This document shows, piece by piece, positions 17,426-56,247 of a stretch of DNA of 64,000 nt. Within the stretch, counting starts at the first letter, position 1. Every line of letters starts with the position of its first letter. The notes beneath the pieces were generated by a model. It did not search any database. It was not told the DNA's origin and saw nothing but the letters and a program-made list of their open reading frames with translations. This stretch comes from Oceanospirillaceae bacterium (lineage in GTDB: Bacteria; Pseudomonadota; Gammaproteobacteria; Pseudomonadales; Balneatricaceae). The DNA lies in the NCBI GenBank assembly GCA_013215505.1, contig JABSQZ010000010.1, positions 62,001 to 126,000 of the forward strand, written 5' to 3'. The translations under genes were made by a program, and so were the position numbers.

Positions 17426-17474
17426 GTCAGTCGTCAGTCGTCAGTCGTCAGTCGTCAGTCGTCAGTCGTCAGTC
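17426..17474 (-). repeat. Heptamer tandem array: GTCAGTC x7
   Basis: Seven perfect tandem copies of GTCAGTC, beginning 4 nt after the cyclase stop. Read on the minus strand the unit is ACTGACG, which fits the ACTNNCN family seen at seven other places in the window. Confidence 0.97.
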
Positions 17475-17630
17475 CAATGATGACTGATAATAAGAGGTTT
17501 TTAACGCTTTTTCTTTTTAAGGAGATATGCTCTCACTGTAATATTTGCGTCTTTAAATATATATTTCCCGGTTTAACAAAACAGCCGGAAATCAATTTTC
17601 CAGCCAGTTACTAGTGCCGGTTTTTTGCCG

Positions 17631-18293
17631 TTATCCGGCACTGGCTAATGCTAACTTAATTGCAAACAAGACAAAGCCCGCCCCGACCCCACCACCGGAA
17701 ATGGCGCTGATTTTCTTACGCTTAGCAAAGGCTGTGGCTAACACTGAACCGGCGTAAATCAGTAGCGCCAGATACAACAAGCTAAATAGCTGAAGGGTAA
17801 CAGCTAAGATGAAAAAAGGCAGCGCTGGATCCGGGTAGCCCGGATCGACAAACTGGACAAAGAAAGACAGTAAAAACAGTATCGCTTTAGGGTTGAGTAA
17901 ACTAACCAACAGCGCCTTTTGGAAAGCTTTTGATCCCGAGGTTTTTTTAATCCGCGGCGCTGTTTCAAGACTGTCCGTATCCACCTTCTTCCAAGTGCGG
18001 ATAGCCCCTCCAATCAAGTTATAACCGATATAAATCAGATAAGCGGCACCGGCGTATTTAATGATCATAAATATCGCCGGGTAAGTTGTCAAAATAGTAA
18101 TAGCACCCAGAGCGGTAGCGACTATTAACAAAGTGTCGCCAATAAACACCCCCATTACCGCCGCCCAGCCACTGCGCTTGCCCTGCTGAGCTGCCAGAGA
18201 TAACACGTACAGCGAATTAGGGCCAGGTAACAGAATAATCAACACTGCGCCCAACACATAAGTCAGGTAATTTACTACACCAAAACTTTCCAT
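17631..18293 (-). CDS. leuE: LysE/RhtB-family amino-acid exporter, LeuE-like
   Basis: A 220-residue membrane protein with about six helices. It carries the family signature LLPGPNSLYVL near residue 22, VFIGDTLLI, and NPKAILFLLSFFVQFVDP. The opening FGVVNYLTYVLGA and the spacing throughout closely resemble E. coli LeuE, the leucine/methionine/histidine efflux protein. The substrate is inferred from that similarity. It is convergent with the cyclase and lies next to a LysR gene on the same strand (86 bp away). Confidence 0.87.
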   Translation of the reverse strand: MESFGVVNYLTYVLGAVLIILLPGPNSLYVLSLAAQQGKRSGWAAVMGVFIGDTLLIVATALGAITILTTYPAIFMIIKYAGAAYLIYIGYNLIGGAIRTWKKVDTDSLETAPRIKKTSGSKAFQKALLVSLLNPKAILFLLSFFVQFVDPGYPDPALPFFILAVTLQLFSLLYLALLIYAGSVLATAFAKRKKISAISGGGVGAGFVLFAIKLALASAG

Positions 18294-18378
18294 TACTCGA
18301 TCCCGCCAGATAAAAAATTAAGAGAGCGGATTTAAGCATAGATTGTGCTTTAGGACGAGCACAATAACGCCCGCTTAT

Positions 18379-19290
18379 TCAGCATTTTTGATCCAGACGT
18401 TTTGCAAACACTTCAATCATGTAGTCCAGGAAAGCGCCAACTTTAGGTATGTTAACCCGATGTTTAGGGTATAGGGCATAGATATCGACATCGCTCATCC
18501 CCCACTGAGGTAAGATATTGACTAGCTGTGCAGAGTTAACTTCCTGCTGGCACATGTATTCAGGCAGTATCGTCACGCCAACACCATCTACAACAGCTTG
18601 TCGCAAAATGGCATAATCATCCACCACTAATCGCGGCGTCAAACTCAGCTGCTGAGTTTGTGCCGCAGTTTCAAGTAGCAATTTTCCATCACTGTGAACG
18701 CTGCTCATCAATAAAAAATCGCAGCGCTGTAAATCATCTGGCGACTCAATTTTAGCGCAGCGCTTCAGGTAGTCGGGGCTGGCGTAAAGTCTTCGCCGGG
18801 CTCTGCCCAATCTTCGGCCAATTAACCGCGAGTCGGCTAATTGACCGACGCGGATCAACATATCAAAGCCCTCTTCAATCAAATCGATACGCCGATTCAC
18901 TAAATTCAACTGCATATTGATATCGGGATACTTGAGCATAAACCGTCCCAGCGCCGGTTGGATAATTTGCTGGCCTATGGTCACAGAAGCCCCTATGCGC
19001 AATTGCCCTCTCAGGGAATGCAAGACCTCAGAGATGCCAGCAGTGGCCAAATCTAACTCTTCATGGATGCGTCGACAGTGATTTAAATAGCGCTTTCCCG
19101 CTTCAGTCAGATGCTGAGCGCGGGTCGTGCGCTCTAATAAGATAATCCCTAATTGCTGCTCCAGTCGAGACACCTTGCGACTGACATTTGCCTTGGGAAT
19201 ATGCAAACGTTCTGCTGCACTGGTAAAGCCACCACTTTCGACTACAGCCAAAAATACCATCATATCGTTCAAATCGACTTTTTCAGTCAT
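18379..19290 (-). CDS. LysR-family transcriptional regulator
   Basis: A 303-residue LysR regulator: winged helix (VDLNDMMVFLAVVESGGFT, recognition segment IPKANVSRKVSRLEQQLG) and an effector-binding domain. The start is uncertain; ATG at 19290 is used because GGA lies upstream, while 19308 would add six residues. It is divergent from the pirin and isochorismatase-family genes, with a dyad in the interval, so it probably controls them. Effector unknown. Confidence 0.9.
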   Translation of the reverse strand: MTEKVDLNDMMVFLAVVESGGFTSAAERLHIPKANVSRKVSRLEQQLGIILLERTTRAQHLTEAGKRYLNHCRRIHEELDLATAGISEVLHSLRGQLRIGASVTIGQQIIQPALGRFMLKYPDINMQLNLVNRRIDLIEEGFDMLIRVGQLADSRLIGRRLGRARRRLYASPDYLKRCAKIESPDDLQRCDFLLMSSVHSDGKLLLETAAQTQQLSLTPRLVVDDYAILRQAVVDGVGVTILPEYMCQQEVNSAQLVNILPQWGMSDVDIYALYPKHRVNIPKVGAFLDYMIEVFAKRLDQKC

Positions 19291-19312
19291 TATTACAGCA
19301 TCCAACATTGTT

Positions 19313-19338
19313 GTTGATTATGGAATTATATTATCAAC
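19313..19338. promoter_or_regulatory. Candidate LysR operator
   Basis: Imperfect dyad GTTGATTAT-N8-ATTATCAAC (8 of 9 pairs) in the 118-bp divergent interval between the LysR gene and the pirin gene. It has the long interrupted-palindrome form typical of LysR recognition sites. Confidence 0.5.
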
Positions 19339-19408
19339 TTAATGGTATATATCAAACAATAATTAGCATTTATCATAGCGACATCACTCACAACTAGCGG
19401 GGCAAGCA

Positions 19409-20089
19409 ATGCAACTATTATCAAAAAATTCAATACAACAAGGCGGATTCGCCGGTTTACTTGAGCATCGACTAGTCACTGATAGCCGAATTTTTGGCAG
19501 CAACAAAAAGCCCGATACTTTTGAGGGGCTTGGAAATTTTGTTTACCTGGCCGATGCGCAATTTAATCCTCGGGGCGAAACCGGTATGCACCCTCACAAA
19601 GAGATAGATGTCATCTCGGTAATGATTGAGGGACGGGTCAACCACCAGGGCTCTCTTGAGCACGGCAAGGGGTTATCGGCAGGTGATGTGCAAGTACAAC
19701 GCGCCGGTGCAGAAGGTTTTAGCCACAATGAAATCAACCCTGATCAACACAAAAACCGCATGATACAGCTGTGGGTTTTACCCCAGAAGTCTGGTGAGAG
19801 TGCTGGATACAAACACTACAGTCCAAAAGCTCAAGGGATAACACGAATTTATGGGGGAGATAACAATCAATCAGACACTTTCGACAGCCCGACCCGCATA
19901 CACATAGTGAACTTAGCGCCCGGTGAGAGCATCCGTTTTCCCACCGAGCAACTCAGTTATATCACCAGAGGCGAGGCGCAGTTCAATGAACAACAGCAGA
20001 GCTTACGCGCCAGTGATGGCGATCTGATTCGCTCGCAACAGCTGAGCGTTACCGCGCACACTTTTACCAGCATGATTGTCATCAGTTAA
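19409..20089 (+). CDS. Pirin family protein
   Basis: A 226-residue bicupin of the pirin family. The N-terminal cupin has the metal-site pattern MHPHKEIDVIS with the second motif GAEGFSHNE. Bacterial pirins (YhhW/YhaK type) include quercetinases and redox-regulated proteins of unknown substrate. The LysR-pirin-YcaC arrangement recurs in proteobacteria and points to a stress- or electrophile-inducible unit. It is followed 51 bp later by the YcaC-like gene, likely the same transcript. Confidence 0.92.
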   Translation: MQLLSKNSIQQGGFAGLLEHRLVTDSRIFGSNKKPDTFEGLGNFVYLADAQFNPRGETGMHPHKEIDVISVMIEGRVNHQGSLEHGKGLSAGDVQVQRAGAEGFSHNEINPDQHKNRMIQLWVLPQKSGESAGYKHYSPKAQGITRIYGGDNNQSDTFDSPTRIHIVNLAPGESIRFPTEQLSYITRGEAQFNEQQQSLRASDGDLIRSQQLSVTAHTFTSMIVIS

Positions 20090-20140
20090 GTCCCTTGGCC
20101 AGTTCAATTTAGCCATTACTTTTATACATACGAGAAGCCA

Positions 20141-20764
20141 ATGAATAAATACAGCGAAACTTTAACCTTGGATAACGCCGTTCTGGCTATGATAGATCAT
20201 CAAACCGGCCTGTTAGTTAATTGCCGCGATCAAGACCTGCATTTAATGACCGCCAACATAAAAGGCCTCTGTCATTTAGCCAAAGTGGTTGATATGCCCA
20301 CCGTCATTACCGCCAGCATGCAAGAGGGCCCCAATGGGCCGGTCATGCCAGAAATCACAGATATTTTAGGCACTGATATAATTAACCGCCCTGGAGAAAT
20401 TAACGCCTGGAAAAACCCTGCATTTAAGCAGGCAATTGAAGCGACAGGTCGCAAAAAGATTATCATGGCCGGCATTGTCACTGATGTCTGCCTGATGTTT
20501 CCCGCTATCTCGGCGGTGGCTGAAGGCTATGATGTGTATGCGGTAGTCGACGCTTCGGGAACCTGGAACAGTGCGGTCGCAAATGCCTCGATCCATCGCA
20601 TGACTCAGGCGGGCGTTAAAGTAGCCACCTGGGCCTCGGTACTGGCTGAGGTCATGGATGATTGGCGCAGCGAAAAAGGCATGCAGCTTGGTGGAGTGCT
20701 GGCAGAACACACTGGCTACCGCTGGGTCTACAATAGCTTTTTACAAGCCAGCGAGCAAAACTGA
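20141..20764 (+). CDS. ycaC: Isochorismatase-family hydrolase, YcaC-like
   Basis: A 207-residue cysteine hydrolase of the isochorismatase superfamily. Residues match E. coli YcaC closely in order and length: AMIDHQTGLL with catalytic D19, GPNGPVMPE, RPGEINAWKNPAF, and the nucleophile region GIVTDVCLMFPA with C117. YcaC forms octamer rings and its substrate is unknown. It is downstream of pirin and divergent from LysR. The last base of its TGA stop is also the first base of a heptamer repeat array. Confidence 0.92.
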   Translation: MNKYSETLTLDNAVLAMIDHQTGLLVNCRDQDLHLMTANIKGLCHLAKVVDMPTVITASMQEGPNGPVMPEITDILGTDIINRPGEINAWKNPAFKQAIEATGRKKIIMAGIVTDVCLMFPAISAVAEGYDVYAVVDASGTWNSAVANASIHRMTQAGVKVATWASVLAEVMDDWRSEKGMQLGGVLAEHTGYRWVYNSFLQASEQN

Positions 20765-20784
20765 CGACTTACGACTTACGACTA
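20764..20784 (+). repeat. Heptamer tandem array (ACGACTT x3)
   Basis: Three units ACGACTT, ACGACTT, ACGACTA. The first unit begins on the final A of the preceding gene's stop codon. The array lies between convergent genes, five bp from the selO stop. Confidence 0.85.
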
Positions 20785-20788
20785 TTAT

Positions 20789-22276
20789 TTAAGTCCCACA
20801 GTAAGTCGTATAGCAACCAAATTCATCCGGTGCCGGGGTTGAAAACTCATCGAAGTCTTGACCTTGCTCGAAAGGGTTAGTCAGTGCCGCCAGCAGTTTT
20901 TCAAAGGGGGCAAAATCGGCGTTTTCCTCGGCCGCTTTTATCACTTGCTCCACTTGGTGGTTGCGTGGGATATAGATAGGATTGACCTTGTTCATGGCTG
21001 CTGCCCGTACTTCGCTACTCTGCGGGTCACGGCTTAAGCGTGCATCCCAGCGCTGCTGCCATTGCTGAAAAACTTCTGTATCGGTAAAGAGTATTTTCGT
21101 CGCCTCGCTGTCACCTTGGACTAGATTAGCCAGTGCCCGGAACAACTGGGTAAAATCGACCTTTTGTGCGGCTAATATTTGCAGCAGCTCGTTGGCCAGT
21201 GCTAAATCTTCTGGTTCTTGATTGTCTATACCCAACTTACTGCGCATCCCCGCTAGCCAATATTGCTGGTAACTCTGCTCGAAGCTGTTAATCACATCGG
21301 TGGCCTGTGGAATCGCCTGTTCAGCATCGCTGCTGATCAAGGGTAATAAGGTTTCAGCGAAACGTGATAAGTTCCAAATGGCCGCGGCCGGTTGGTTCGA
21401 GTAGGCATAGCGACTCTGACTATCAATTGAACTGAAAACAGCCGCCGGGTCAAAGCTGTCGATAAAGGCGCAGGGGCCATAATCGATAGTTTCACCCGAT
21501 ATGGTCATGTTATCGGTATTCATTACCCCGTGCACAAAACCTAAGTTCATCCACTTAGCGATTAAGCTCGCCTGTTTATTGCACACTTCTTTTAGCAAAC
21601 CTAGATAGCAATCCGGGCTATCTTTGAGATGCCTAAAGTGACGTTCAATACTGTAGTCGGCCAGCAGCTTTACTTTATCGCTCTGGCCACGGGCGGCGAA
21701 GAACTGGAAACTACCCACTCTGATATGGCTGCTGGCAACACGTGCCAATACCGCACCTGGCACCAAGTGCTGGCGCATCACTCGCTCACCGGTGGTGACC
21801 ACCGCCAGTGCCCGGGTCGTTGGCACATTTAAACTGTGCATCGCCTCCCCTAACAAATATTCACGCAACACTGGCCCCAACACGGCTTTGCCATCTCCAC
21901 CGCGGGAAAACACCGTGCGCCCTGAACCTTTTAAGTGTATGTCGCGGCGCTGCTGGTTGCTGTCCAACACTTCGGCCAATAGCAGTGCCCTGCCATCACC
22001 CAATTGCGCACTAAAACCGCCGAACTGGTGTCCTGCATAAGCTTGCGCCAGTGGCGTTGTCCCCTTGACACTCGCACCACCGGAGAGCATCTCGGCCAAT
22101 TTTGCATCTGACAAATTTGCTAAATCCAGACCTAGAGTCTGCGCCAGCGGCCGGTTCAGTTTGACCAGCTCGGGAGAGGGAGCTTTATCGCCGGCAAACA
22201 AGGCATAGAAATCGGGGAGCTCGCGGGCGAAGCTGTTATCGATGTTCAGGCCTGAATCTATTTCTATATCACTCAT
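20789..22276 (-). CDS. selO: Protein adenylyltransferase SelO, paralogue 1
   Basis: A 495-residue SelO (YdiU/UPF0061) pseudokinase-fold enzyme that transfers AMP from ATP to Ser/Thr/Tyr of target proteins, with a redox role in the family. Visible signatures are the phosphate-binding HLKGSGRTVFSRGGDGKA, FVHGVMNTDNMTISGETIDYGPCAFID (catalytic Asn/Asp and metal Asp) and the C-terminal YCGT with the conserved redox cysteine. Length is normal. ATG at 22276 (MSDIEIDSG) is chosen; a GTG at 22288 is in frame. A second SelO lies 638 bp upstream in the same orientation. Confidence 0.95.
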   Translation of the reverse strand: MSDIEIDSGLNIDNSFARELPDFYALFAGDKAPSPELVKLNRPLAQTLGLDLANLSDAKLAEMLSGGASVKGTTPLAQAYAGHQFGGFSAQLGDGRALLLAEVLDSNQQRRDIHLKGSGRTVFSRGGDGKAVLGPVLREYLLGEAMHSLNVPTTRALAVVTTGERVMRQHLVPGAVLARVASSHIRVGSFQFFAARGQSDKVKLLADYSIERHFRHLKDSPDCYLGLLKEVCNKQASLIAKWMNLGFVHGVMNTDNMTISGETIDYGPCAFIDSFDPAAVFSSIDSQSRYAYSNQPAAAIWNLSRFAETLLPLISSDAEQAIPQATDVINSFEQSYQQYWLAGMRSKLGIDNQEPEDLALANELLQILAAQKVDFTQLFRALANLVQGDSEATKILFTDTEVFQQWQQRWDARLSRDPQSSEVRAAAMNKVNPIYIPRNHQVEQVIKAAEENADFAPFEKLLAALTNPFEQGQDFDEFSTPAPDEFGCYTTYCGT

Positions 22277-22568
22277 TGCGGGTTCCACTGGTTCAGAGTT
22301 GTATGGCTAAATAATGGGTTTAATCCGTTGCCCTTGCACTTTTGCAAGCTCTTCGATCGGGATATAAAGTCACATATCAGCGAAGAGATTTATTGGCAGG
22401 TTTCTTAGTTTGTTAATTAATCAATAGGGGCGCAGCACTCATTTACAAGCTAAAATAGTTTATCAAATTGTTGAAAGCGACTCTTTATTAAGTTCTTAAA
22501 CAAAAATCAAAAGAATTGAACTAACTTCCCTTTTAATTTTTTAAAATAATTTCGCCTTTGGCGAGTTA
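22277..22568. other. Intergenic region upstream of selO1
   Basis: AT-rich, no ORF; it presumably holds the selO1 promoter on the minus strand. No box was scored with confidence. Confidence 0.5.
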
Positions 22569-22598
22569 CTTTCTCTTTGCTTGCTCCAAAGAGAAAAG
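22569..22598. repeat. Short inverted repeat
   Basis: CTTTCTCTTTG / CAAAGAGAAAAG with a 7-nt spacer (one bulged A). The wider context (GGCGAGTTACTTTCTC...AAAGAGAAAAGGCACCC) resembles dispersed intergenic repeats seen in many proteobacterial genomes. It directly precedes the larger foldback element. Confidence 0.6.
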
Positions 22599-22625
22599 GC
22601 ACCCACGATTACCGAAAACTCCTCC

Positions 22626-22723
22626 GCTATTTAGCAAATGACTGGCCGCTCATCAGCGGCATCCATGCCGCATTCGCTCTGCGAAACATCCTGTTTCTCC
22701 GCTTCAGTCATTTGCTAAATAGC
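22626..22723. repeat. 98-bp foldback element with 19-bp perfect inverted ends
   Basis: Terminal arms at 22626-22644 and 22705-22723 are perfect 19-bp complements (GCTATTTAGCAAATGACTG and its reverse complement). Inside are two smaller hairpins, GCCGCT/AGCGGC and CGGCAT/ATGCCG. There is no ORF of note. It could be a miniature inverted-repeat element or a structured RNA. Confidence 0.75.
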
Positions 22724-22870
22724 TCCAGCGGTAATCTCATGGGGGCTAGAACTTTGTAGTTCAATCCAGCTGTTGGGATAATATATGTGCGACTTGCGAC
22801 TGCCTTACACTGGCTAATATTTCCACTAACATTTTGGTTTGACCTTCCTCACGCCTCACACCTGTTTTTT

Positions 22871-22912
22871 ACTTACAACTTACAACTTACGACTCACTAC
22901 TTCGTACTTATC
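22871..22912 (+). repeat. Heptamer tandem array (6 units)
   Basis: Six units in one 7-bp register: ACTTACA, ACTTACA, ACTTACG, ACTCACT, ACTTCGT, ACTTATC. A two-unit stub (ACTTGCG, ACTGCCT) sits at 22792-22805. The array ends 1 nt before the stop codon of selO2. Confidence 0.88.
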
Positions 22913-22913
22913 C

Positions 22914-24518
22914 CTAAGTCCCACAATAAGTCGTGTAGCGAGTCGAAGTATCTGCAGCCGCACTGGCGTACTGCTCAAGCCCTTCTCGCTCGATAAAGGG
23001 CTGGCTCAGTACCCGCTGTAGTTTTTCGAAAGGACCGTAGTCCGCGTGATCTTCTGCAGCTTTGATCGCCTGCTCAACTAAATGATTGCGGGGGATGTAG
23101 ATGGGGTTTACCGCATTCATCGCAGCTGCACGAGTGGCGGGCGTTTGTGGATCGCGCTCTAACCGGTCAGCCCAGCGCGCTAGCCATTGCTCGAAGGCGT
23201 TGGGATGGGTAAATAAGTCAACTGCGGGGCCAGGGATCCCTGCTACGACTTTAGCCAGGGCACGAAACAGCCCAGTGTAGTCGACTTTCTGTGCGGCCAT
23301 GAGCTCTAATAGATCATCGGCTAATTTTTTGTCTTCTGCCTCTGCATTACTTAAACCTAATTTGCCGCGCATACCGTCCAACCAAAATTTTTGATAATTT
23401 AGCTGAAAACTATTCATTAAGGTTAGCGCCAGTGTCAGATCTTCTGGCTCTTCATTGTATATGGCCAGTTTGCGGCGCATTCTATCAAGCCACTGTTGAC
23501 GGTACTTGCCATCAAAGCTGTTGCTAACACTAAAAGCTTGCTCTACAGCTTGTGCGGCTCCTGTGCCTATCAGTGGTAACAAAGTTTCACCCAGGCGCGC
23601 TAAGTTCCACAGTGCCGCGGGGGGCTGATTGTTGAAGCGGTAGCGACCCTGGCTGTCGATCGAACTAAATAGCGCTGTGGGATTGTAGCTGTCAATGAAA
23701 GCGCAGGGGCCATAATCGATGGTTTCCCCACAGATAGTCATGTTGTCGGTGTTCATAACCCCGTGTACAAAACCTAGATTCATCCATTTGCTGACCAGCG
23801 CAGCCTGGCTTTTACAGACCTCACTAAGCAGTCGCAAATAACAGTGATGTTCTGCTTCTGACCCGCAGATTAACTGTGGAAAATGGCGTTTGATGGCGTA
23901 GTCAGCCAACAGTTTTACCTTATCGGTTTGACCACGATCAGCGAAGTATTCAAAGGTACCCACCCTGATGTGGCTGCTGGCGACCCTGGCCAGTACTGCA
24001 CCGGCTAGGGGCTTATGGCGTTTAATTTTCTCACCGGTAGAGACAACCGACAGCGCCCGGGTAGTAGGCACATTCAGCTGCTGCATCGCCTCACACAGTA
24101 TGTATTCGCGCAGGATCGGACCGATACTCGCCTTGCCGTCACCCGCGCGTGAATACGCGGTGCGGCCGCTGCCTTTAAGATGAATATCACGGCGCTGACC
24201 GCCGTTGTCTAGCACTTCGGCTAATAAGATTGAGCGGCCATCACCCAATTGTGGGCTGAATATGCCAAATTGATGCCCGGCATAAACTTGTGCCAGAGGC
24301 GCAGCCCCTTTGATGTCTGTGCCACCGGAAAGCATTGCGGCTAATTGCGGCTCTGACAAATTATCTGTGTCTAGACCCAGACTATTCGCCAACGGCTGAT
24401 TGAACGCAATCAAAGTAGCTGCCGGGGCTCTGTCCCCCTGACTAGGGGTATAAAAGCCAGTCAGTTGCTCGGCGTAGCTATTGTCAACATTTAGCCCAGA
24501 ATCTATCTCATCACTCAT
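22914..24518 (-). CDS. Protein adenylyltransferase SelO, paralogue 2, with internal duplication
   Basis: A 534-residue SelO paralogue with the same catalytic signatures as paralogue 1 (HLKGSGRTAYSRAGDGKA; FVHGVMNTDNMTICGETIDY; C-terminal YTTYCGT). It is about 39 residues longer than its neighbour, and the excess is explained by a tandem duplication of a 36-residue segment that occurs once in paralogue 1. ATG at 24518 (MSDEIDSG) is chosen over 24527. It follows msrB-msrA on the same strand with only 44 bp between, so it is probably cotranscribed with these oxidised-methionine repair genes. This fits a redox-stress role for SelO. Confidence 0.94.
   Translation of the reverse strand: MSDEIDSGLNVDNSYAEQLTGFYTPSQGDRAPAATLIAFNQPLANSLGLDTDNLSEPQLAAMLSGGTDIKGAAPLAQVYAGHQFGIFSPQLGDGRSILLAEVLDNGGQRRDIHLKGSGRTAYSRAGDGKASIGPILREYILCEAMQQLNVPTTRALSVVSTGEKIKRHKPLAGAVLARVASSHIRVGTFEYFADRGQTDKVKLLADYAIKRHFPQLICGSEAEHHCYLRLLSEVCKSQAALVSKWMNLGFVHGVMNTDNMTICGETIDYGPCAFIDSYNPTALFSSIDSQGRYRFNNQPPAALWNLARLGETLLPLIGTGAAQAVEQAFSVSNSFDGKYRQQWLDRMRRKLAIYNEEPEDLTLALTLMNSFQLNYQKFWLDGMRGKLGLSNAEAEDKKLADDLLELMAAQKVDYTGLFRALAKVVAGIPGPAVDLFTHPNAFEQWLARWADRLERDPQTPATRAAAMNAVNPIYIPRNHLVEQAIKAAEDHADYGPFEKLQRVLSQPFIEREGLEQYASAAADTSTRYTTYCGT
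23307..23522 (-). repeat. Intragenic 108-bp tandem duplication in selO2
   Basis: Two adjacent 36-codon segments, 23415-23522 and 23307-23414. Each begins with Asn-Ser-Phe and preserves Tyr at +4, WLD at +8, MR at +12, KL at +15 and an EDxxxA segment. Paralogue 1 has one copy (NSFEQSYQQYWLAGMRSKLG). The two copies have diverged, so the event is not recent. Confidence 0.85.
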
Positions 24519-24562
24519 TAAGCACACTCTGTTTCAACCTTGACTCAAGCCTTATACTTTCG

Positions 24563-25715: not shown

Positions 25716-25806
25716 ACTTACGACTCACTACTGCCGTCTCACTACTGCCGTCTGCCGTCTTACGTCTTACGACTTACGACTTACGACTTACGACTTACGA
25801 CTTTTT
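25716..25806 (+). repeat. Heptamer tandem array (13 units, seven sequence variants)
   Basis: Unbroken 7-bp register: ACTTACG, ACTCACT, ACTGCCG, TCTCACT, ACTGCCG, TCTGCCG, TCTTACG x2, ACTTACG x4, then a degenerate ACTTTTT. This is the longest array in the window and the only one lying upstream of a gene (142 bp before the racemase-like start) rather than at a stop codon. Confidence 0.95.
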
Positions 25807-27943: not shown

Positions 27944-27968
27944 CAATGAATGGGGATTAATTCAGTGC

Positions 27969-35489: not shown

Positions 35490-35559
35490 TCTGTCAACTG
35501 CCGACTCAATACTTCCTACTTCCTACTTCCTACTTCCTACTCATTAGTTATTACTTATT
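35490..35559 (+). repeat. Heptamer tandem array (10 units) running into a stop codon
   Basis: One 7-bp register: TCTGTCA, ACTGCCG, ACTCAAT, ACTTCCT x4, ACTCATT, AGTTATT, ACTTATT. The last unit contains the complement of the stop codon of the convergent PLP-enzyme gene, and the array starts 24 nt after the LysR stop. Confidence 0.9.
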
Positions 35560-36745
35560 CGATATACGCCAGTGCCTGTTCTAAATCAGCCAACAGATCG
35601 TCAACGTCTTCTATTCCGGTCGAGTAGCGTACCAACCCCTCCGGAATTCCCGCTGCAGCGCGTTCAGCTGCTGTGCACTCCACATGGCTAGTGACCACTG
35701 GAGGGCCTACCACAGTTTCAACACAGCCTAAGTTGGCCGCCATATGTGCGTATTGTAACTTTGGCAGAAAGACTTTAATTGCCTCCAGACCGCCCTTTAC
35801 GCTGAAACTCAACATGCCGCCAAAGCCATGCATCTGTCGCTTGGCGATATCGTGGTGTAAGTGGCTCTCTAAGCCCGGGTAGTTAACTTGCTCAACGGCT
35901 GGGTGTTGGGTCAGCCAGTTGGCAATCGTCATTGCACTCTGGTTTTGTCGCTCCACTCTTAAACTCAAGGTTTTCATTCCACGCAGCAAAGAGTAGGCAT
36001 CCATAGGTGCCAGCGCTGCACCGTTGATCTCACGATAGTGATAGAGCTTTTTGATCAGTGCAGCACTACCACATGCGATTCCACCTAAGGCATCTGCATG
36101 ACCGCCAAGGTATTTAGAGGCGCTGTGAATCACTATATCAGCACCTAATGCCAGCGGATTACAGTTGATCGGAGAGGCAAAAGTATTATCAACTACCACT
36201 AACGCACCCACCGCTTTAGCAGCCTTAGCCAGACGTTGAATATCAACTATTTTCACCGTCGGGTTAGTCGGGGTTTCCAAGTACAACATCTTGCAGCCAC
36301 CGGCTATTTCAGCTTCAAGCTCACTGTGGTCAGTGGTATCACATAGAGACACTTCTATCCCCAGTGGTGGCAAAAACTCAGTAAACAACTTATTGGTGCC
36401 ACCGTAGCTATCCTTGATTGAGATAATCCGATCACCCGGACTAAGCAGTGCCCCGAAGGTGTTGCTGATGGCTGCCATGCCTGAGGAAAAACTGGTCGCC
36501 GCCTCGGCTCCCTCTAACACTTTTAGCTTGTCTTCAAAGGTGCGCACGGTCGGATTGGTATTACGTGAATAGATATGCCCAGGCTCATTCCCCAGGGCTA
36601 CATTCTGCCAGGTATCGATATCTTTATAGGCAAAAGAGACACTGTGTACCACCGGTACCTGGGTCGAGCGCTCGTATAATTCATGTTCCGTCTCGCCACC
36701 CCAGATGCTCAGTGTCGCCGCCGCTGGCTGTTTGCTATTATTCAT
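35555..36745 (-). CDS. Cys/Met metabolism PLP enzyme (cystathionine gamma-synthase/lyase family)
   Basis: A 396-residue fold-type-I PLP enzyme. It has the SRNTNPTVRTFEDKLKVLEG substrate/PLP region, SSGMAAISN, and the Schiff-base lysine in HSASKYLGGHAD. The family includes cystathionine gamma-synthase, beta/gamma-lyases and methionine gamma-lyase, and sequence alone does not settle which. The divergent Lrp/AsnC regulator and the nearby amino-acid genes favour a catabolic lyase. ATG at 36745 has GGAG 8 nt upstream; a TTG at 36757 is in frame. Confidence 0.88.
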   Translation of the reverse strand: MNNSKQPAAATLSIWGGETEHELYERSTQVPVVHSVSFAYKDIDTWQNVALGNEPGHIYSRNTNPTVRTFEDKLKVLEGAEAATSFSSGMAAISNTFGALLSPGDRIISIKDSYGGTNKLFTEFLPPLGIEVSLCDTTDHSELEAEIAGGCKMLYLETPTNPTVKIVDIQRLAKAAKAVGALVVVDNTFASPINCNPLALGADIVIHSASKYLGGHADALGGIACGSAALIKKLYHYREINGAALAPMDAYSLLRGMKTLSLRVERQNQSAMTIANWLTQHPAVEQVNYPGLESHLHHDIAKRQMHGFGGMLSFSVKGGLEAIKVFLPKLQYAHMAANLGCVETVVGPPVVTSHVECTAAERAAAGIPEGLVRYSTGIEDVDDLLADLEQALAYIE

Positions 36746-36910
36746 ATGTTGCTCCAATCCTTTTTATAATCGTGGGCAGACTATAGCAAAAGCATATAAG
36801 CTATTTTGATCAGACATCTTTCCTTTAGGATATTTTCAGATCACGTTTTCTGATAGTATGATCGATAACAAGCATTTAGATTAATTCTGGCTTTATTGGA
36901 GAGATAAGCT

Positions 36911-37428: not shown

Positions 37429-37477
37429 ACTTACAACTCACAACTCACTACTCACTACTCACTACTCACTACTATAT
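37429..37477 (+). repeat. Heptamer tandem array (7 units)
   Basis: ACTTACA, ACTCACA, ACTCACT x4, ACTATAT in one register, 48 nt after the Lrp stop, in the 230-bp gap before the CHASE4 cyclase gene. Confidence 0.9.
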
Positions 37478-43564: not shown

Positions 43565-44154
43565 TAGCGAGTAGACAGCCTTGAGCGGATAAATGGTCGA
43601 TGCAGTACAGCCCTGAGCGCATAAAAGCCGAGTAGCGAGACTATCCTACTACGCATGCAGGAAAGCGAATTAATTGGTACTTTAGACAGTAACAATCAAA
43701 ACCTCTGTTGCAAGATTAAAAATTTGCAACAGATGCTTAGATAAGTGCCCGGCTTTAGCGCACCACTTATCTCTTTTAACCCGTTAACCCTTCATTTATT
43801 GATCTCGATGACACTTGTTAATCTAGTCAATAATAGATAACGGTATAAGTCGTGTGGGAGTGTCGGCAAATATCATCTTTGCAAGTGCAGACATTATTCA
43901 GCGTACAACGGTAATCCTTTAAGAGTGATTTTCTCCAGGACAAATAAATCCTGCTCAGAACCTTCCCCTTACATACAATGTATTCAGGTTGTATTGCGTT
44001 TTTCCGGACTATGTCAGTTACTCACTTGCAATGAGCAATCTGGCTTAACCGATGGCGGCTCTTAACCTACAGCGGACACTCAAGAAGGCTATCCAGAGGC
44101 CGGTTCAACCGGCATTTGAGGAGCACAGCTTTATCAATTCTAGAACAATTATGT
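43565..44154. other. 590-bp intergenic region with a perfect hairpin
   Basis: No supported gene. It holds a perfect 10-bp inverted repeat TCTGTTGCAA-N10-TTGCAACAGA at 43704-43733, and a second dyad AGATAAGTG/CACTTATCT close by at about 43740-43773. There is no T-run after either. They may mark the end of the cupin transcript or a structured RNA. Confidence 0.5.
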
Positions 44155-49157: not shown

Positions 49158-49288
49158 TCACGAAGTTCACTATCGTTTTTAGAATTAAAGATGCAATCTA
49201 AACAAACTGATTGTGCATTATTTTAAACAACCAGGGACGCGAAACCTTACCCCTAGTGAAAAACGACCATTTATTGGCCGCCTTGACT

Positions 49289-49608: not shown

Positions 49609-49724
49609 ATTTTCCCTAAGCTAGCCTGCACTCGATCGTTTGCCAGATCGCTGTCTTGCAACAGTGATCTGACATAGCGACGCAGAGCCGGACTCTCTGC
49701 GCTGATGGCTTGCCAATTCGCCAT

Positions 49725-50357: not shown

Positions 50358-50480
50358 ATTTATATCCTTTCAATAAGTTCAGTTTGTAATATAGACTACG
50401 CAGCAAGGGGTCGTTATATTCCAATTAATTTAAAGAATTTTCAAATCCAACAACAGCTACCAGACTTAAAAGGATTTAAC

Positions 50481-50957: not shown

Positions 50958-51118
50958 AACGGTGGTTTACCTAGATGTGTCACTAAGGGCTGTGCCTATG
51001 AAAATGTTTAAAACTGTATATTAATGGTATTTTTCCAGTGGCTATACTGCTACTTTCTACTCCTTAATACCCCTTTAAAAGAACTGGTTAGTCTATTGCC
51101 AGGCATCTGGAACGCATT

Positions 51119-51967
51119 TTGAAAATCATCCATTTAGATCGCGCTATAGATGATCGACAACGGGCAAAATTGTTGTTTTCCGGGCATTTACTGGTCTATC
51201 GGCAGCGCAGTTCAATGCTGGAATTGATCGACTACACAAGATCAATACTGCGGGCCGAACTCGCTGATCTGGAACCTACTATAGCCCAGCAACATTTAAC
51301 CGCGGAGCAATTTTTACAAGCGAGCGGTGCGGCGCAAACCCGTTTTAGAACAGATGTAAAAGCCCGTCAGCTATTCTTTCAAGTATTACGCCAGTGCGGT
51401 GTAAAAACCCATAATTGTTACTATGATCACTTTCCGCTGCGAGTGGTGCCATTTTCCAACAGTCACACTGGGGCCCATCGGGCGGCCATTGGCCACCACC
51501 GAGACACTTGGGGCAGCAACATCCATTGCCAGCAAAACTGGTGGGCACCTATATATCCTTTAACCAGCGATCGCACAATTGCCATCTATCCCACTTACTG
51601 GCAACAAGCCATCGCCAACAATACCCATAGCTGGAGCTTTAGAGACTTTTTAGCCAGCCGTGCACAAACTAAAACTGAACGCGCAGTAGCCTACCCCAGC
51701 GCCCCAAGTCCAACGGCAAAGGTGGATGAAAGCGCTGTCATCAAGCTGCTGATTGAGCCCGGTGATGTACTGAATTTTGCCAGCGCCCAATTGCACGCCA
51801 GCGTACCCAATAGCAGTGACGCCACCCGCTATAGCGTAGAGATGCGCACTGTACATTTAGCCGACTTAAGGGCAAATCGTCAGGCACCTAACCTGGATAA
51901 CGCCGCTACTGAGCCTATGTATGCATGGTTCAAAAATATTGAGACTAAGATGAAGTTGAACCCATAA
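51119..51967 (+). CDS. Probable 2-oxoglutarate/Fe(II)-dependent oxygenase
   Basis: A 282-residue protein with a facial-triad pattern: HRDTWG (HxD) near residue 126 and QLHASVPNSSDATRYSVEMR near residue 226, giving the distal His and the 2-oxoglutarate-binding Arg. This is the phytanoyl-CoA-dioxygenase-like layout. Substrate unknown. The start is TTG with GGA 9 nt upstream; no ATG fits better. It is monocistronic. Confidence 0.72.
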   Translation: MKIIHLDRAIDDRQRAKLLFSGHLLVYRQRSSMLELIDYTRSILRAELADLEPTIAQQHLTAEQFLQASGAAQTRFRTDVKARQLFFQVLRQCGVKTHNCYYDHFPLRVVPFSNSHTGAHRAAIGHHRDTWGSNIHCQQNWWAPIYPLTSDRTIAIYPTYWQQAIANNTHSWSFRDFLASRAQTKTERAVAYPSAPSPTAKVDESAVIKLLIEPGDVLNFASAQLHASVPNSSDATRYSVEMRTVHLADLRANRQAPNLDNAATEPMYAWFKNIETKMKLNP

Positions 51968-52303
51968 TTAAAGGAAAAAACACATAAACCCGCTACCTTC
52001 TCTGCGAGCTCCAATACTTGTTTAGCAAAGAGCTAAGTCATATAACTTTCACTGATATTAGTCATTGCTTTTGTGCTGTTGTAGTAATTACAGGCTCTAA
52101 GCATTTTTAATGACTGATATTCCTTAGCATATCTGCTCTTTTGCAGCCTGTTTACTGAAAAACAGACTAGAATTTAATTATGGGTTTTGGAAGTACCCAG
52201 TCACTATCAGGTAACTCGAAACACATTTTTTACAGAATAAAACCCGCTCCAATGTGAATATTTTGCAGATGAATATTTACCCCGAAAAACCGGAGATAGC
52301 GCT
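51968..52303. other. 336-bp intergenic region
   Basis: AT-rich; nothing recognisable apart from the promoter expected for the following gene. Confidence 0.5.
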
Positions 52304-52726
52304 ATGCCTGAAAAACTCAAAGATAAAGATATCCAGGATGCGCTGCATATGTGCTTCGACTTTTTAAAAATTTGCAACGGTTTTTTACCTCAGGACTTTG
52401 CTGAAAACATGTCTCTGGATAAATTCTTTCTGTTAGTGGGGTTTCAGTTCGGTGCATTCAGTCAGGCCGCGCAGCAATTCGATATCAGTATCGAAGATGC
52501 CACTGAATTATTTCCAGTGATATTAGAAACGATCAATGGATTATCAGAAAATGAAGCCAGTCAGACTGCAGAGAAAATAGCTAATTTGATCAGCTCCGGT
52601 TATCCGCCAATTGAAATTGGCAGAGATGCCATGGCAGCATTTAACGGTGCTGAGGATGATTCTATTCGCGCTAAAGCAGCACAAAAAATACAATTATTGA
52701 TAGACAATTATAGTCAGTCATCCTAA
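52304..52726 (+). CDS. Hypothetical helical protein (140 aa)
   Basis: Not recognised. A 140-residue, acidic, helix-rich soluble protein (segments KFFLLVGFQFGAFSQAAQQF, DATELFPVILETINGL). GGAG 8 nt before the ATG. No signal peptide. The strong ribosome site and codon pattern make it a likely real gene. Confidence 0.7.
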   Translation: MPEKLKDKDIQDALHMCFDFLKICNGFLPQDFAENMSLDKFFLLVGFQFGAFSQAAQQFDISIEDATELFPVILETINGLSENEASQTAEKIANLISSGYPPIEIGRDAMAAFNGAEDDSIRAKAAQKIQLLIDNYSQSS

Positions 52727-52831
52727 TAAATTGGCACTTGATAGTAATTCAGCTGAAAAAGCTTTCAGTCAACACTGATGTATTGCCGATAAATTAGATC
52801 CCCCTATGAATAACATGGCCAACTTGATCGT

Positions 52832-53242
52832 CTATTGGTCAGTTAATAGTTCAAGTAACTGATTAGATTCTCTGTCTATTTTTAATTTTATCCCCTGAAT
52901 ATCCACCAGCACTGATCCATCTTCCGCGACTGGACTTATTGAGTCAGCATTAGACAGTATTGCAGTACCTATAACCTGACCTGCAGCCAATTTTGTCTGC
53001 CATCCGGGTGGCAAAGTTTCGCCGCGCTCTAACTTCTTCTTTAACCCAGCAGGTAATGCTTTGGGCTTAGTACTGCCATAATTTTTCCTGGCCTTAGCTG
53101 ATTTGTTTGGCTTATTGGACTTATCTGATTTTTCTGCACGCTCAGATTTATCTGCTTTATCCGATTGGCCTTTTTTTGCTTCAGCGGGTACGACCAGCAG
53201 TGTCGATAATACTAAACAGATAGCAGTATTGGATAATGTCAT
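52832..53242 (-). CDS. Secreted Lys/Asp/Ser-rich protein with RcnB/CigR-like LPPG motif
   Basis: A 136-residue exported protein (signal peptide cleaved near AEA). A low-complexity charged segment built on an imperfect K-S-D/E-K repeat covers residues 22-55. Then comes LPAGLKKKLERGETLPPGWQ, the duplicated LPPG motif found in RcnB/CigR-type periplasmic proteins, and a C-terminal beta-rich domain ending in IKLKIDRESNQLLELL. Periplasmic role, perhaps metal or envelope homeostasis, is inferred only. Confidence 0.7.
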   Translation of the reverse strand: MTLSNTAICLVLSTLLVVPAEAKKGQSDKADKSERAEKSDKSNKPNKSAKARKNYGSTKPKALPAGLKKKLERGETLPPGWQTKLAAGQVIGTAILSNADSISPVAEDGSVLVDIQGIKLKIDRESNQLLELLTDQ

Positions 53243-53537
53243 AAAACATCTCTTATAACCGTTAACATTTAGGTAAGTTTAGCAGCTGCAGGCCAATGTA
53301 TGCTCTGATCTAGAATTAGCAACCTTGCAGAAGTTCAAACTACTCAAAAGTCCTTTCCCTTGGCATAGATCTACAGAAGGTGTAAGTTAAATGCGATGAA
53401 TTGCAAAGTATTTACTACTAATTTTCAGATAGTTACAAAGTTTCTACACCCTTAAAAACACAAAATAACTTTTCTAGTAAATTTACAGGCAATGATCCAA
53501 TGGCACATTTAAACAATCCCGCTCAAACAAAACATCA

Positions 53538-53801
53538 ATGGCTATTGGTATTGGTATTGGTATTGGTATTGGTATTGTGGTTTCATTAGGCATTACCATT
53601 TTTGACTTTCGCATTAAGCTAAGAAGAGGCGGCGAAAAAGCTGATATTTATGCCGGAAACACCCAGAGTCTTACCAAATTGACATTTATTATTTCCCTGA
53701 TCGCAAAAAAAATCGCCTTTGCTTTGTCTGACTATTTTAATCAACTAGGTTATCGGGTGAATACCCTAACCGTTGCAGTATTAGAGAACCCAAAAGCGTA
53801 G
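53538..53801 (+). CDS. Doubtful ORF (87 aa) built on a hexamer repeat
   Basis: An 87-codon frame beginning with a Gly-Ile repeat encoded by tandem GGTATT. There is no ribosome binding site and no recognised family. The remainder could be a remnant of a membrane protein. I list it only because the repeat keeps the frame; it may well be non-coding. Confidence 0.2.
   Translation: MAIGIGIGIGIGIVVSLGITIFDFRIKLRRGGEKADIYAGNTQSLTKLTFIISLIAKKIAFALSDYFNQLGYRVNTLTVAVLENPKA
53547..53576. repeat. Hexanucleotide microsatellite GGTATT x5
   Basis: Five perfect copies of GGTATT, preceded by one imperfect GCTATT. Copy-number change would not shift the reading frame. Confidence 0.95.
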
Positions 53802-54308
53802 TATTTAACACACAGCCATTTTTCTTCAACAGGAAAAACTTTTCCCAGGCCATCGGCCTTAGCACTAAAATGCAGCAAGTACTTGGCTATCCCATCAACG
53901 GCTACAAATTTCAAGGGTCTCAATAAGTCCCCTCTATGATGATTGTTTTCACCTACGCTGAAACTGAAGACACACACAACTCACAAACATGGTTCACATA
54001 AACAAATAACTAATTACAACAACAATCAATCTAACCCGACATATTCCTGCACTGCAAAAACACCATTCAGGGCTTTTCCGCTCTCCCTTAATCAACCGCT
54101 CAGTTGGCAGGGGTTACAATCAATCAACAACTTAACAAAGCCAAGCGACTATCAAGTACACTGTGCACCTGATTATTTCGCAACCCACAGAGAAAGCTCA
54201 GGGGTTATTGGCAGACCTTCTAATGGCTTGATAGTTAACAACAGTTGCACAAAACTTGATATGAACTAGATTTAGTATATTTATCGGCATTATTTTATGG
54301 AGAATATA
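53802..54308. other. 507-bp intergenic region
   Basis: No supported gene. A 108-codon frame at 53943-54269 has atypical composition for this window and no ribosome site. The 3' end holds the ribosome site GGAG of the following gene. Confidence 0.5.
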
Positions 54309-55211
54309 ATGGTCAATAAGGTCGAATTAGTAGCAAATGGCATTAAAGTTTCTGAATTAGTTCAGGGCTATTACCGGATGACCGACTGGGAAGTCGATCG
54401 CCAATCGCTACTCAGTTTTATCAAAGCGCACATGGACCTGGGAATAACTAGCATAGATCATGCCCATGTTTACGGTGACCCCGCCTGTGAAGAAGTATTT
54501 GGTAACGCGCTTAAACTGCAACCTAGCTTGCGCCAGGATATGCAGCTGATCACAAAATTTGGCATTATCCAGGCCCAGCATACCCAGTCAGTGACTGCAC
54601 ATTATAACAGTGACAATGCCAGTATTATGGCATCTGTGGATAGCTCCCTAAAAAGACTGCAAACAGATTATATCGATATTTTATTAATGCATCGCCCCGA
54701 TCTGCTGATGGATGCCGATGAAGTCGCGGATACTTTCAAAACGTTGCAAAAACAGGGCAAAGTTCGGCACTTTGGCGTTTCTAATTTTACCGTTGCACAG
54801 TTCGAACTACTTCAGTCCAGACTGGAGCAACCGCTGGTCACCAACCAAATCGAAATCAATCCGGTCAATTTAGAGTCTTTAGAAGATGGCACACTAGAGC
54901 AGGCACAGCGCTTAAGAGCACGCCCTATGGCCTGGTCACTGATGGCCGGTGGACGCATGTTCAAAGAAAATACCGATAAGAATTTTCGCTTAAGAACAGT
55001 ATTAACCGAAGTGATGGATGAGATTAACGCTCAGTCAATGGACCAGGTTGTGTATGCATGGGTTAGAAAACTACCTGCCAAACCTGTGGCTATAATCGGC
55101 AGTGGCAAGATAGATCGCGTTCAATCAGCAGTTGATTCACTGGCTTTTAACATGACTCACGAACAGTGGTACAGGATTTGGGTCGCATCGAAAGGTCATG
55201 GTGTGGCCTAG
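54309..55211 (+). CDS. ydhF: Aldo/keto reductase, YdhF-like oxidoreductase
   Basis: A 300-residue TIM-barrel NADPH-dependent oxidoreductase. Segments match E. coli YdhF closely: GYYRMTDW, DLGITSIDHAHVYG (catalytic Asp/Tyr region), LLMHRPDLLMDADEVADTF, GKVRHFGVSNFT and IIGSGKIDRVQSAV. ATG at 54309 has GGAG 6 nt upstream, better than the ATG at 54297. Physiological substrate unknown. The GNAT gene follows on the same strand. Confidence 0.92.
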   Translation: MVNKVELVANGIKVSELVQGYYRMTDWEVDRQSLLSFIKAHMDLGITSIDHAHVYGDPACEEVFGNALKLQPSLRQDMQLITKFGIIQAQHTQSVTAHYNSDNASIMASVDSSLKRLQTDYIDILLMHRPDLLMDADEVADTFKTLQKQGKVRHFGVSNFTVAQFELLQSRLEQPLVTNQIEINPVNLESLEDGTLEQAQRLRARPMAWSLMAGGRMFKENTDKNFRLRTVLTEVMDEINAQSMDQVVYAWVRKLPAKPVAIIGSGKIDRVQSAVDSLAFNMTHEQWYRIWVASKGHGVA

Positions 55212-55289
55212 CAATGACTGTTTGCAGTGAAGATGGCCTATAACATAGAGAGTACAAATCTGTATTGCCAAAAAACTGCCGGAAAAGTG

Positions 55290-55739
55290 ATGCACATAAT
55301 ACGAATAGACAATCCAAACTCTGCAGAACTGCCACTGCTAATCAATTTAATGCAACAGCAAATGCGCGATATTGGTTCACAAAAAAGCCCTCGCGCCATT
55401 CAATCCGCTATCGTTAATGCCCTGAAAGCAGAGTCGCGCGCTTGTTTCTTCCTGGCTAAAGAGCATGATATTGCAGTAGCGACTATATTTCTCAATCTCT
55501 GCAGCGGTATTGAAAGTGTTGGAGACTATATCTGGATCAATGAAATTCAGGTAGCACCTGCTTACCGGGGAAAAGGCGTAGCGACTCTAATGCTCAATCA
55601 TCTAACAAGCTGGGCTGAGGAAAATGACATCACTGCCATTTATGGAATGACAGATATAGATAACCAGGCCTCTCAAGCACTCTTTAAAGCCAAACAATTC
55701 AACGTAACTAACAGCAAATGGCTCAGCCGAGAAGTATAA
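55290..55739 (+). CDS. GNAT-family N-acetyltransferase
   Basis: A 149-residue GNAT. The acetyl-CoA-binding motif A is VAPAYRGKGVATLMLNHL (Q/RxxGxG/A form) near residue 90, followed by YGMTDIDNQASQALFKAKQF, the motif-B/C region. Acceptor unknown. ATG at 55290 with GGAAAAG upstream matches the fold start; the frame is open from 55227. A heptamer array begins 15 nt after its stop. Confidence 0.88.
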   Translation: MHIIRIDNPNSAELPLLINLMQQQMRDIGSQKSPRAIQSAIVNALKAESRACFFLAKEHDIAVATIFLNLCSGIESVGDYIWINEIQVAPAYRGKGVATLMLNHLTSWAEENDITAIYGMTDIDNQASQALFKAKQFNVTNSKWLSREV

Positions 55740-55753
55740 TTTTAATAACAGCA

Positions 55754-55816
55754 ACTCACTACTTCCAACTTCCAACTTGCGACTTCCAACTTGCGACTTG
55801 CTACTCGCTACTCGCT
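55754..55816 (+). repeat. Heptamer tandem array (9 units, five variants)
   Basis: One register: ACTCACT, ACTTCCA x2, ACTTGCG, ACTTCCA, ACTTGCG, ACTTGCT, ACTCGCT x2. It starts 15 nt after the GNAT stop and ends 11 nt before the next candidate start codon. Confidence 0.95.
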
Positions 55817-55827
55817 ACACCTTAAAT

Positions 55828-56112
55828 ATGGAGCATGCAGTAAAGGAAATGCAGGCCCCCTGGGCGCAAATAATTATCATGCACCAAGACCGTTCATTTA
55901 CCCCTGATGCTGAAAAATTGATGTTCAAATCAGTCCGCTGCAGAAAGATGTCCGGCCTTTATACCTCTGCCATAGTGTTGATAGAAAATACCGCACGCTT
56001 CGCCATTGAATATCAAGTATCAGAAATTTACCGCAGTTCTGACATAGCCCACAGTTATTTCGACACTGAACAACAAGCCAGAGTGTGGCTAGATAAAGTG
56101 ATGCCAGTTTAA
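55828..56112 (+). CDS. Hypothetical protein, possibly N-truncated STAS-like
   Basis: A 94-codon frame from ATG 55828 (MEHAVKEMQAPWAQIII). Its pattern of DAEKLMFKSVRC, an Ala/Val strand, then SYFDTEQQARVWLDKV resembles the C-terminal two-thirds of SpoIIAA/STAS-like regulators of about 120-130 residues, which end in a DxxxARxWL helix. The expected N-terminal strand would lie where the heptamer array now is. No ribosome site precedes the ATG, so this may be a fragment truncated by the array. The family call is tentative. Confidence 0.45.
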   Translation: MEHAVKEMQAPWAQIIIMHQDRSFTPDAEKLMFKSVRCRKMSGLYTSAIVLIENTARFAIEYQVSEIYRSSDIAHSYFDTEQQARVWLDKVMPV

Positions 56113-56212
56113 TAGATGACCCTGATACCCTAAATACCCAGCATCAATGCAGAGTGTTTATCTTTAGCCTCTTTATCATCGCAAAAGGCAACTACACAGC
56201 TGCCTTCTTTAT

Positions 56213-56247
56213 ACTTACGACTGACGACTGACGACTGACGACTGATC
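56213..56247 (+). repeat. Heptamer tandem array (5 units) abutting the ridA stop
   Basis: ACTTACG, ACTGACG x3, ACTGATC in one register. Its last base is immediately adjacent to the stop codon of the minus-strand ridA-like gene. Confidence 0.92.

What the first reader, a model, noticed from the sequence alone, without database searches (positions are those of the whole stretch)
17426..56247. A family of heptanucleotide tandem arrays (ACTNNCN) with variable units in strict 7-bp register
Eight arrays occur at 17426-17474, 20764-20784, 22871-22912, 25716-25806, 35490-35559, 37429-37477, 55754-55816 and 56213-56247. Units differ (ACTTACG, ACTCACT, ACTTCCT, ACTTGCG, ACTGACG, ACTGCCG and others) but nearly all fit ACTNNCN and stay in phase within an array. 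Mixed units in one register are not explained by simple slippage of one motif. They recall the short tandemly repeated heptamers (STRR) known from cyanobacteria, but the phylum is different.
Basis: partly seen in the sequence, partly recalled or inferred. Interest (0 to 1): 0.85.

Follow-up and report, generated by a model that had tools for sequence, protein, structure and literature searches.

The report
Seven-base repeats behind stop codons
This bacterium carries many short arrays of seven-base units that follow one partly fixed spelling and often start right behind a gene's stop codon, mostly read in the gene's own direction, which points to a shared but still unknown job, or a shared way of arising, at gene ends.

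Summary
ACTNNCN arrays are a genome-wide family: 1,194 overlapping matches in 5.73 Mb against 7 for the reversed pattern, and 52 arrays in 864 kb against 0 in 2.4 Mb of Markov sequence.

Their position is the new point. Read on the strand NGNNAGT, 29 of 52 arrays begin within 30 nt of the stop codon of a same-direction gene, against 4 of 52 for the opposite direction. Five of the eight window arrays do so. At 5 of 5 compared stop-side sites related species keep an array of other units under the same rule.

The same position and orientation are published for Xanthomonas GGGAATC repeats (PMC4692102), explained there by G-quadruplexes. 34 of 52 arrays here lack the GG runs for one and keep the position. 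In a distant relative with facing arrays, the arms do not match at free positions, which speaks against a selected hairpin.

My best reading: a slippage-grown array whose heptads are read singly by an unidentified nucleic-acid-binding factor at gene 3' ends. Transcription-coupled expansion without function is a close rival. New variant of a known kind.

The parts
17425..17473 (+). array, sense strand TGTCAGT(CGTCAGT)6; 2 nt behind the stop of the GGDEF gene 15995-17422 (+)
   Evidence: gene by Pfam
20760..20787 (-). array (3 exact units and one degenerate), exact core 8 nt behind the stop of SelO gene 20789-22288 (-); the first unit also holds the stop of the convergent gene 20141-20764 (+)
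   Evidence: SelO and isochorismatase by Pfam; array with other units at the same place in G006
22871..22912 (-). array (4 exact of 6), behind the stop of the second SelO gene 22914-24527 (-); exact core 15 nt from it
   Evidence: shorter array at the same place in G006
25716..25806 (-). array (8 exact of 13, mixed ACT/TCT units); no sense-direction stop adjacent (exception)
   Evidence: orthologous array cut by a contig end in G006
35490..35545 (-). array (5 exact of 8), exact core 16 nt behind the stop of the Cys/Met PLP-enzyme gene 35555-36757 (-); its far end also forms an inverted repeat CGGCAGTTGA...TCAACTGCCG
   Evidence: gene by Pfam
37429..37470 (-). array of 6 exact units between two plus-strand ORFs; not stop-anchored in sense (exception)
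55754..55816 (-). array of 9 exact units of 5 kinds; lies 14 nt behind the stop of a plus-strand GNAT gene in the opposite orientation (counter-example)
   Evidence: gene by Pfam
56213..56247 (-). array (4 exact of 5), exact core 7 nt behind the stop of the RidA-like gene 56248-56673 (-)
   Evidence: gene by Pfam (Ribonuc_L-PSP)

Best explanation
The arrays are gene-3'-end elements made of tandem heptads, NGNNAGT on the coding strand. Shown: they start just behind stop codons far more often than chance, mostly in the direction of the gene; at stop-side sites they are kept in related species while their units turn over; and they keep A, C, T (less strictly C6) of ACTNNCN. Inferred: units multiply and are lost by replication slippage, and selection keeps those units that a sequence-specific DNA- or RNA-binding factor can read, heptad by heptad, at or just behind the end of the coding region, for instance as a road-block, boundary or 3'-UTR mark. 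Three heptads make 21 bp, two turns of the helix, so a factor bound side by side is geometrically possible. The factor is not identified, and no effect on transcription was shown.
For: Position: 29 of 52 arrays within 30 nt of a sense stop, 4 of 52 of an antisense stop (p = 7e-8); 23 within 15 nt against a mean of 2.3 and a maximum of 8 in 200 random placements. Arrays without any stop codon in sense: 7 of 12 against 0 of 12, so in-array stops do not cause it. Unit rule: 98 against 44 changes. Other species: of 10 site-genome pairs 6 keep at least 3 exact units, 2 are cut by contig ends and 2 are degraded; the 5 pairs at stop-anchored arrays are all among the 6. G150: free positions of facing arms no more complementary than shuffled partners (86 of 300 shuffles as good or better), so single heptads and not a stem appear to be constrained. 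The same anatomy with other motifs in G286 (GNNGAAA, 11 of 18 tracts at stops against 15% by chance) and G023 (GGTGACG/GGTTACG, 12 of 19 against 28%).
Against: No factor known and no expression data. 23 of 52 arrays are not at a sense stop, three of eight in the window. In the motif-blind version 34 of 52 tracts lie at a stop against 20% by chance, but of the 27 that touch one stop only, 5 have an ACT-type unit in sense, i.e. the opposite orientation. A tie to ends of transcription units is not shown: arrays follow 16 of 227 genes before a convergent gene and 12 of 240 before a same-direction gene at 40 bp or more; the 0 of 129 with a shorter gap is partly trivial for lack of room. G080 (2 of 6 tracts) and G121 (5 of 15) show no clear stop excess over 23-24%. 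C6 is only weakly fixed. The G-over-C skew of the sense strand (0.57; G286 0.86; background 0.01) is predicted by the transcription-coupled rival, not by this one. No sign that arrays replace intrinsic terminators: 4 of 28 array genes have a terminator-like site, against 43 of 181 and 34 of 228 without arrays (crude scan). Genes were called by a longest-ORF rule and checked by Pfam only in the window.
Confidence: 0.38

Rival explanations
1. By-product of transcription: behind the stop codon the nascent RNA is no longer covered by ribosomes, pairs back with the template (R-loop) where the coding strand is rich in G and purines, and provokes slippage in 7-nt steps. Arrays then grow in one orientation just behind stop codons without any function.
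For: Explains place, preferred orientation and the common G-rich sense strand of several lineages with different motifs: sense GC skew 0.57 here and 0.86 in G286 against 0.01 behind other stops; units published for Xanthomonas and Nostoc are G-rich too (PMC4692102). Heptamers were reported as the commonest long repeat class in most genomes and linked to polymerase slippage (Mrazek 2007 as cited in PMC4679880, passage read).
Against: Does not predict fixed A and T: A1, C2, T3 change 12, 8 and 3 times against 22, 31 and 45 for the free positions. Does not predict that different units at one site follow one rule in three species.
Confidence: 0.33
2. Plain neutral slippage in intergenic DNA; arrays look stop-anchored because gene ends limit how far they can spread.
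For: Period 7 dominates; many arrays are runs of one unit; arrays sometimes run into the last codons.
Against: Orientation 29 against 4, kept by stop-free arrays; 42 of 54 motif-blind tracts share one rule; starts are not favoured (9 of 52 tracts against 23% by chance).
Confidence: 0.12
3. RNA or DNA hairpin (terminator, attenuator, mRNA stabiliser) formed by facing arrays.
For: 5 facing pairs in 864 kb here, 3 of 5 with a shared TTTTGAYTGTT linker; 21 facing pairs examined in G150, 17 next to a stop; 70 and 75 inverted pairs reported in two Xanthomonas genomes (PMC4692102).
Against: With 5 facing pairs for 52 arrays, most arrays here have no partner; 2 pairs are arranged the other way round. 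G150 arms do not match each other beyond chance at free positions and pair no better than shuffled partners (20 of 60 shuffles as stable).
Confidence: 0.07
4. G-quadruplex elements as proposed for Xanthomonas and Nostoc.
For: TGGAAGT/CGGAAGT runs could form two-layer quadruplexes (inference); same location as the published repeats (PMC4692102).
Against: 34 of 52 arrays lack four GG runs and are stop-anchored as often (19 of 34) as those that have them (10 of 18).
Confidence: 0.04
5. Mobile or templated element (transposase, reverse transcriptase, CRISPR-like) that writes heptads behind genes.
For: 13 of 21 G150 pairs have a gene end or start within 60 nt on both sides, as if inserted between genes; a few copies here share flanking sequence.
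Against: Sense-3' flanks are otherwise unrelated; no common centre among most G150 pairs (by eye); shared sites across species speak for old arrays. Target duplications were not tested.
Confidence: 0.06

Closest known systems
GGGAATC / GGGANTN heptamer repeats of Xanthomonas and GGGGA(C/T)T of Nostoc (Rehm 2015, PMC4692102; abstract, passages and sections 10, 15, 16 read)
   Same: Period 7, fixed and free positions in one register, intergenic, mostly within 50 bp of a stop on the coding strand, facing pairs, same gene neighbours in sister species with other lengths and sequences. Both fit GNNANTN on the coding strand (my comparison, made after the fact).
   Different: Unit is NGNNAGT, mostly without the GG runs for a quadruplex; few arrays before starts (2 of 52 in the published orientation).
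TAACTGA direct repeats of marine Beggiatoaceae (MacGregor 2015, PMC4679880; abstract and passages read)
   Same: Heptamer arrays, intergenic, gammaproteobacteria, gene-oriented.
   Different: One favoured unit, placed mostly just before start codons; related heptamers rarely or never repeat.
Cyanobacterial STRR heptamers (recalled; only search listings seen)
   Same: Tandem heptamers between genes.
   Different: Other phylum, other units; no rule about stop codons known to me.
Heptad arrays of plasmid pSM19035 parS bound by the ribbon-helix-helix protein omega (PMC9499535: listing and start of abstract seen; details recalled)
   Same: Unspaced 7-bp units with partly free positions, direct and inverted, read by a protein.
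   Different: A few plasmid sites for partition, not many gene ends.

Membership tests
Xanthomonas/Nostoc G-rich heptamer repeats (Rehm 2015) | tandem heptamers with fixed and free positions | tested here: met
[quoted passage not shown]
   29 of 52 sense, 4 of 52 antisense
Xanthomonas/Nostoc G-rich heptamer repeats (Rehm 2015) | facing inverted pairs | tested here: met
   5 facing pairs in 864 kb, fewer than published; 21 printed for G150
Xanthomonas/Nostoc G-rich heptamer repeats (Rehm 2015) | GGG tracts that form G-quadruplexes | tested here: not met
   34 of 52 arrays lack even four GG runs
Xanthomonas/Nostoc G-rich heptamer repeats (Rehm 2015) | preference for four units | not tested
   copy numbers are listed but no test was made
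TAACTGA repeats (MacGregor 2015) | unit TAACTGA next to start codons | tested here: not met
   units; sense starts within 30 nt for 4 of 52 arrays, antisense starts for 2 of 52
Cyanobacterial STRR | cyanobacterial host | tested here: not met
   indirect: by score the Mfd protein is nearest to two Shewanella and one unnamed gammaproteobacterium (56%) among 21 named genomes given of 80; Burkholderiales/Rhodocyclaceae 50-52% (one Roseateles in two pieces, 57 and 42%), alphaproteobacteria and other phyla 37-40%, two reduced SAR86 lower. No cyanobacterium was among the 21.
omega/parS-type heptad arrays | a heptad-binding ribbon-helix-helix protein | not tested
   no candidate gene was looked for
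REP/BIME elements | GTAG-type palindrome | tested here: inconclusive
   none noticed beside the 52 arrays by eye; in G023 9 of 19 tracts have GTAGG[AG] within 40 nt

The most novel reading that the evidence does not exclude
Many bacterial lineages carry a lineage-specific heptad code behind stop codons, read by a fast-evolving binding factor that marks gene ends; NGNNAGT here, GNNGAAA in G286, GGTNACG in G023 and GGGANTN in Xanthomonas would be dialects of one system.
Probability: 0.2. Interest if true: 0.85.

Novelty: new variant of a known kind. Interest (0 to 1): 0.55.

Why it matters
Heptamer repeats have long been known in bacteria without an established function. A genome rich in them, with a degenerate rule and a strong preference for one place and direction behind stop codons, separates the published quadruplex idea from the positional rule and gives a direct system to test either a heptad-reading factor at gene ends or transcription-coupled repeat growth.

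Tried and rejected
Hairpin selection: not supported in G150 by arm shuffling. G-quadruplex as general cause: contradicted. Artefact of stop codons inside units: contradicted by stop-free arrays. Single units as signals behind other stops: no excess of AGTNG in the 558 of 600 genes without arrays. Shared mobile flanks: only a small subset shares sequence. Replacement of intrinsic terminators: inconclusive. tRNA ends: one G150 array follows a tRNA-Gln by 12 nt, but the one array of this genome that I checked near tRNAs lies before a tRNA-Asp; dropped. The 21 G150 pairs were picked from listed hits that came in close pairs and are not an unbiased sample; G174 gave only 1,331 bases and was not analysed; G370 had no match. 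Random heptamers fit the loose 0.7 threshold often by chance (my estimate), so I rely on the exact-fit count, not on the 45 of 54. Because of them, and of the orientation exceptions, I lowered the best explanation from 0.40 to 0.38.
Full report
Observation. The pattern ACTNNCNACTNNCNACT occurs 32 times in the window and 0 times in 100 shuffles. In the whole genome (5,731,702 bases, 52 contigs) ACTNNCN x3 + ACT matches 691 + 503 times, the reversed pattern 2 + 5 times. I took 800 kb of contig C1 plus the window: 52 arrays with at least 3 exact units (44 and 8); 0 in three 800-kb first-order Markov sequences and 2 in the reversed 800 kb. By simple proportion this would be about 340 arrays in the genome (extrapolation). 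A motif-blind scan gave 54 period-7 tracts, of which 42 have a modal unit that fits ACTNNCN exactly (chance 5.5%).

Distribution. Of 38 genomes (own and 37 relatives) 16 have a match. Genus mates G001-G006 have 173, 73, 327, 11, 48 and 212, with controls of 18, 8, 0, 13, 8 and 9, so G004 is not above its control. In the class sample 37 of 369 genomes match, own included, the highest other being G045 with 115. In the phylum sample 38 of 398 match a four-unit sense pattern, with 1,059 overlapping matches here and at most 30 in any other genome of that sample.

Position. Read as NGNNAGT, 29 of 52 arrays start within 30 nt of a stop codon of a same-direction gene (-26 to +21 nt); for opposite-direction stops it is 4 of 52, for same-direction starts 4, for opposite-direction starts 2. 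In 200 random placements the mean within 15 nt was 2.3 and the maximum 8; observed 23. Stop-free arrays behave alike: 7 of 12 against 0 of 12. Motif-blind: 34 of 52 tracts lie at a stop against 20% by chance, 7 of them at two; of the 27 at one stop only, 5 carry the unit in the opposite orientation. By gene: 34 of 597 genes have AGTNGNNAGTNG between -30 and +120 of the stop, most often 0-9 nt behind it, and 19 have the opposite pattern, most often 40-50 nt away. Arrays follow 16 of 227 genes with a convergent neighbour, 12 of 240 with a same-direction neighbour at 40 bp or more and 0 of 129 at less, the last partly for lack of room. In the window 17425, 20760, 22871, 35490 and 56213 follow the rule; 25716, 37429 and 55754 do not.

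Rule and turnover. In 103 neighbouring pairs that differ at one or two positions, positions 1 to 7 differ in 12, 8, 3, 22, 31, 21 and 45 cases. Behind the gene that ends at C1:402281, three species have three different unit strings, with 5 of 6, 4 of 7 and 6 of 8 units exact. Of 10 site-genome pairs, 6 keep at least 3 exact units, 2 are cut by contig ends (2 and 1 exact) and 2 are degraded (2 and 1 exact); all 5 pairs at stop-anchored arrays are among the 6. These are few sites, and I did not test them against a neutral rate.

Other lineages. G023 (same family) has GGTGACG/GGTTACG arrays at stops; 12 of 19 tracts lie at stops against 28% by chance, and 9 of 19 have a REP-like GTAGG[AG] within 40 nt. 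G286 (other family) has GNNGAAA arrays, 11 of 18 against 15%; its unit changes also cluster, 25 of 43 on two positions. G080 (2 of 6 against 23%) and G121 (5 of 15 against 24%) show no clear excess. G150 has facing pairs; in 21 examined, which were picked as pairs, 17 lie within 60 nt of a stop and 13 have a gene end or start on both sides. Their arms are not matched to each other at free positions: 0.65 against 0.63 +/- 0.04 shuffled.

Mechanism. Slippage plausibly makes the arrays, since period 7 and runs of one unit dominate. Slippage alone explains neither the orientation nor the fixed positions. A heptad-reading factor explains the fixed positions and allows for the place, but is not identified. 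Transcription-coupled growth explains place, orientation and the G-rich sense strand (GC skew 0.57 against 0.01) but not the fixed A and T. I give the first 0.38 and the second 0.33.

Literature. Rehm 2015 (PMC4692102; abstract, passages, sections 10, 15 and 16 read) describes heptamers in Xanthomonas with fixed and free positions, mostly within 50 bp of stops on the coding strand when downstream of a gene, with facing pairs, and reports no role in gene regulation; it says such repeats were found in Xanthomonas but not in other gammaproteobacteria. MacGregor 2015 (PMC4679880; abstract and passages) describes TAACTGA repeats before starts. I found no description of NGNNAGT/ACTNNCN arrays or of a non-quadruplex stop-anchored family in searches; these cover only the open library, and I judged most hits by title and start of abstract.

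Verdict. Real, genome-wide, with a strong preference for one place and one strand; a new variant of a known kind whose function is open.

Noticed in passing
window 22500-22785: Dispersed repeat of about 240 bp with many partial copies in this genome and weaker matches in genus mates; it overlaps an Rfam TwoAYGGAY match (22619-22730, minus) and is missing at the orthologous place in G006.
   Followed up: partly
window 43575-43639: Two copies of a short element ACAGCCYTGAGCGSATAAA..., also found at C1:391562 and C1:273705, there next to heptamer arrays; a TTTTGATTGTTA motif lies nearby.
   Followed up: partly
C1:350587, 391599, 432441, 434399: Shared linker TTTTGAYTGTTA between or beside AGT and ACT arrays.
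   Followed up: partly
C1:169748-169802 (own genome); G003 C362 near 14.0 kb: A second heptamer family, GTGAGGT, close behind NGNNAGT arrays.
   Followed up: no
window 20789-22288 and 22914-24527: Two tandem SelO genes, both ending at a heptamer array.
   Followed up: no
window 63198-63473: Tandem repeat of a 99-bp unit, 2.8 copies, overlapping an ORF (63415-63963).
   Followed up: no
window 53543-53577: (TATTGG)5.8 hexamer repeat with no ORF of 100 aa or more listed over it.
   Followed up: no
G023 contig C2: Heptamer arrays often lie beside REP-like elements (GGAAAATTGTAGGAGCCCGG...; 9 of 19 tracts with GTAGG[AG] within 40 nt), a possible link between the two repeat kinds.
   Followed up: partly
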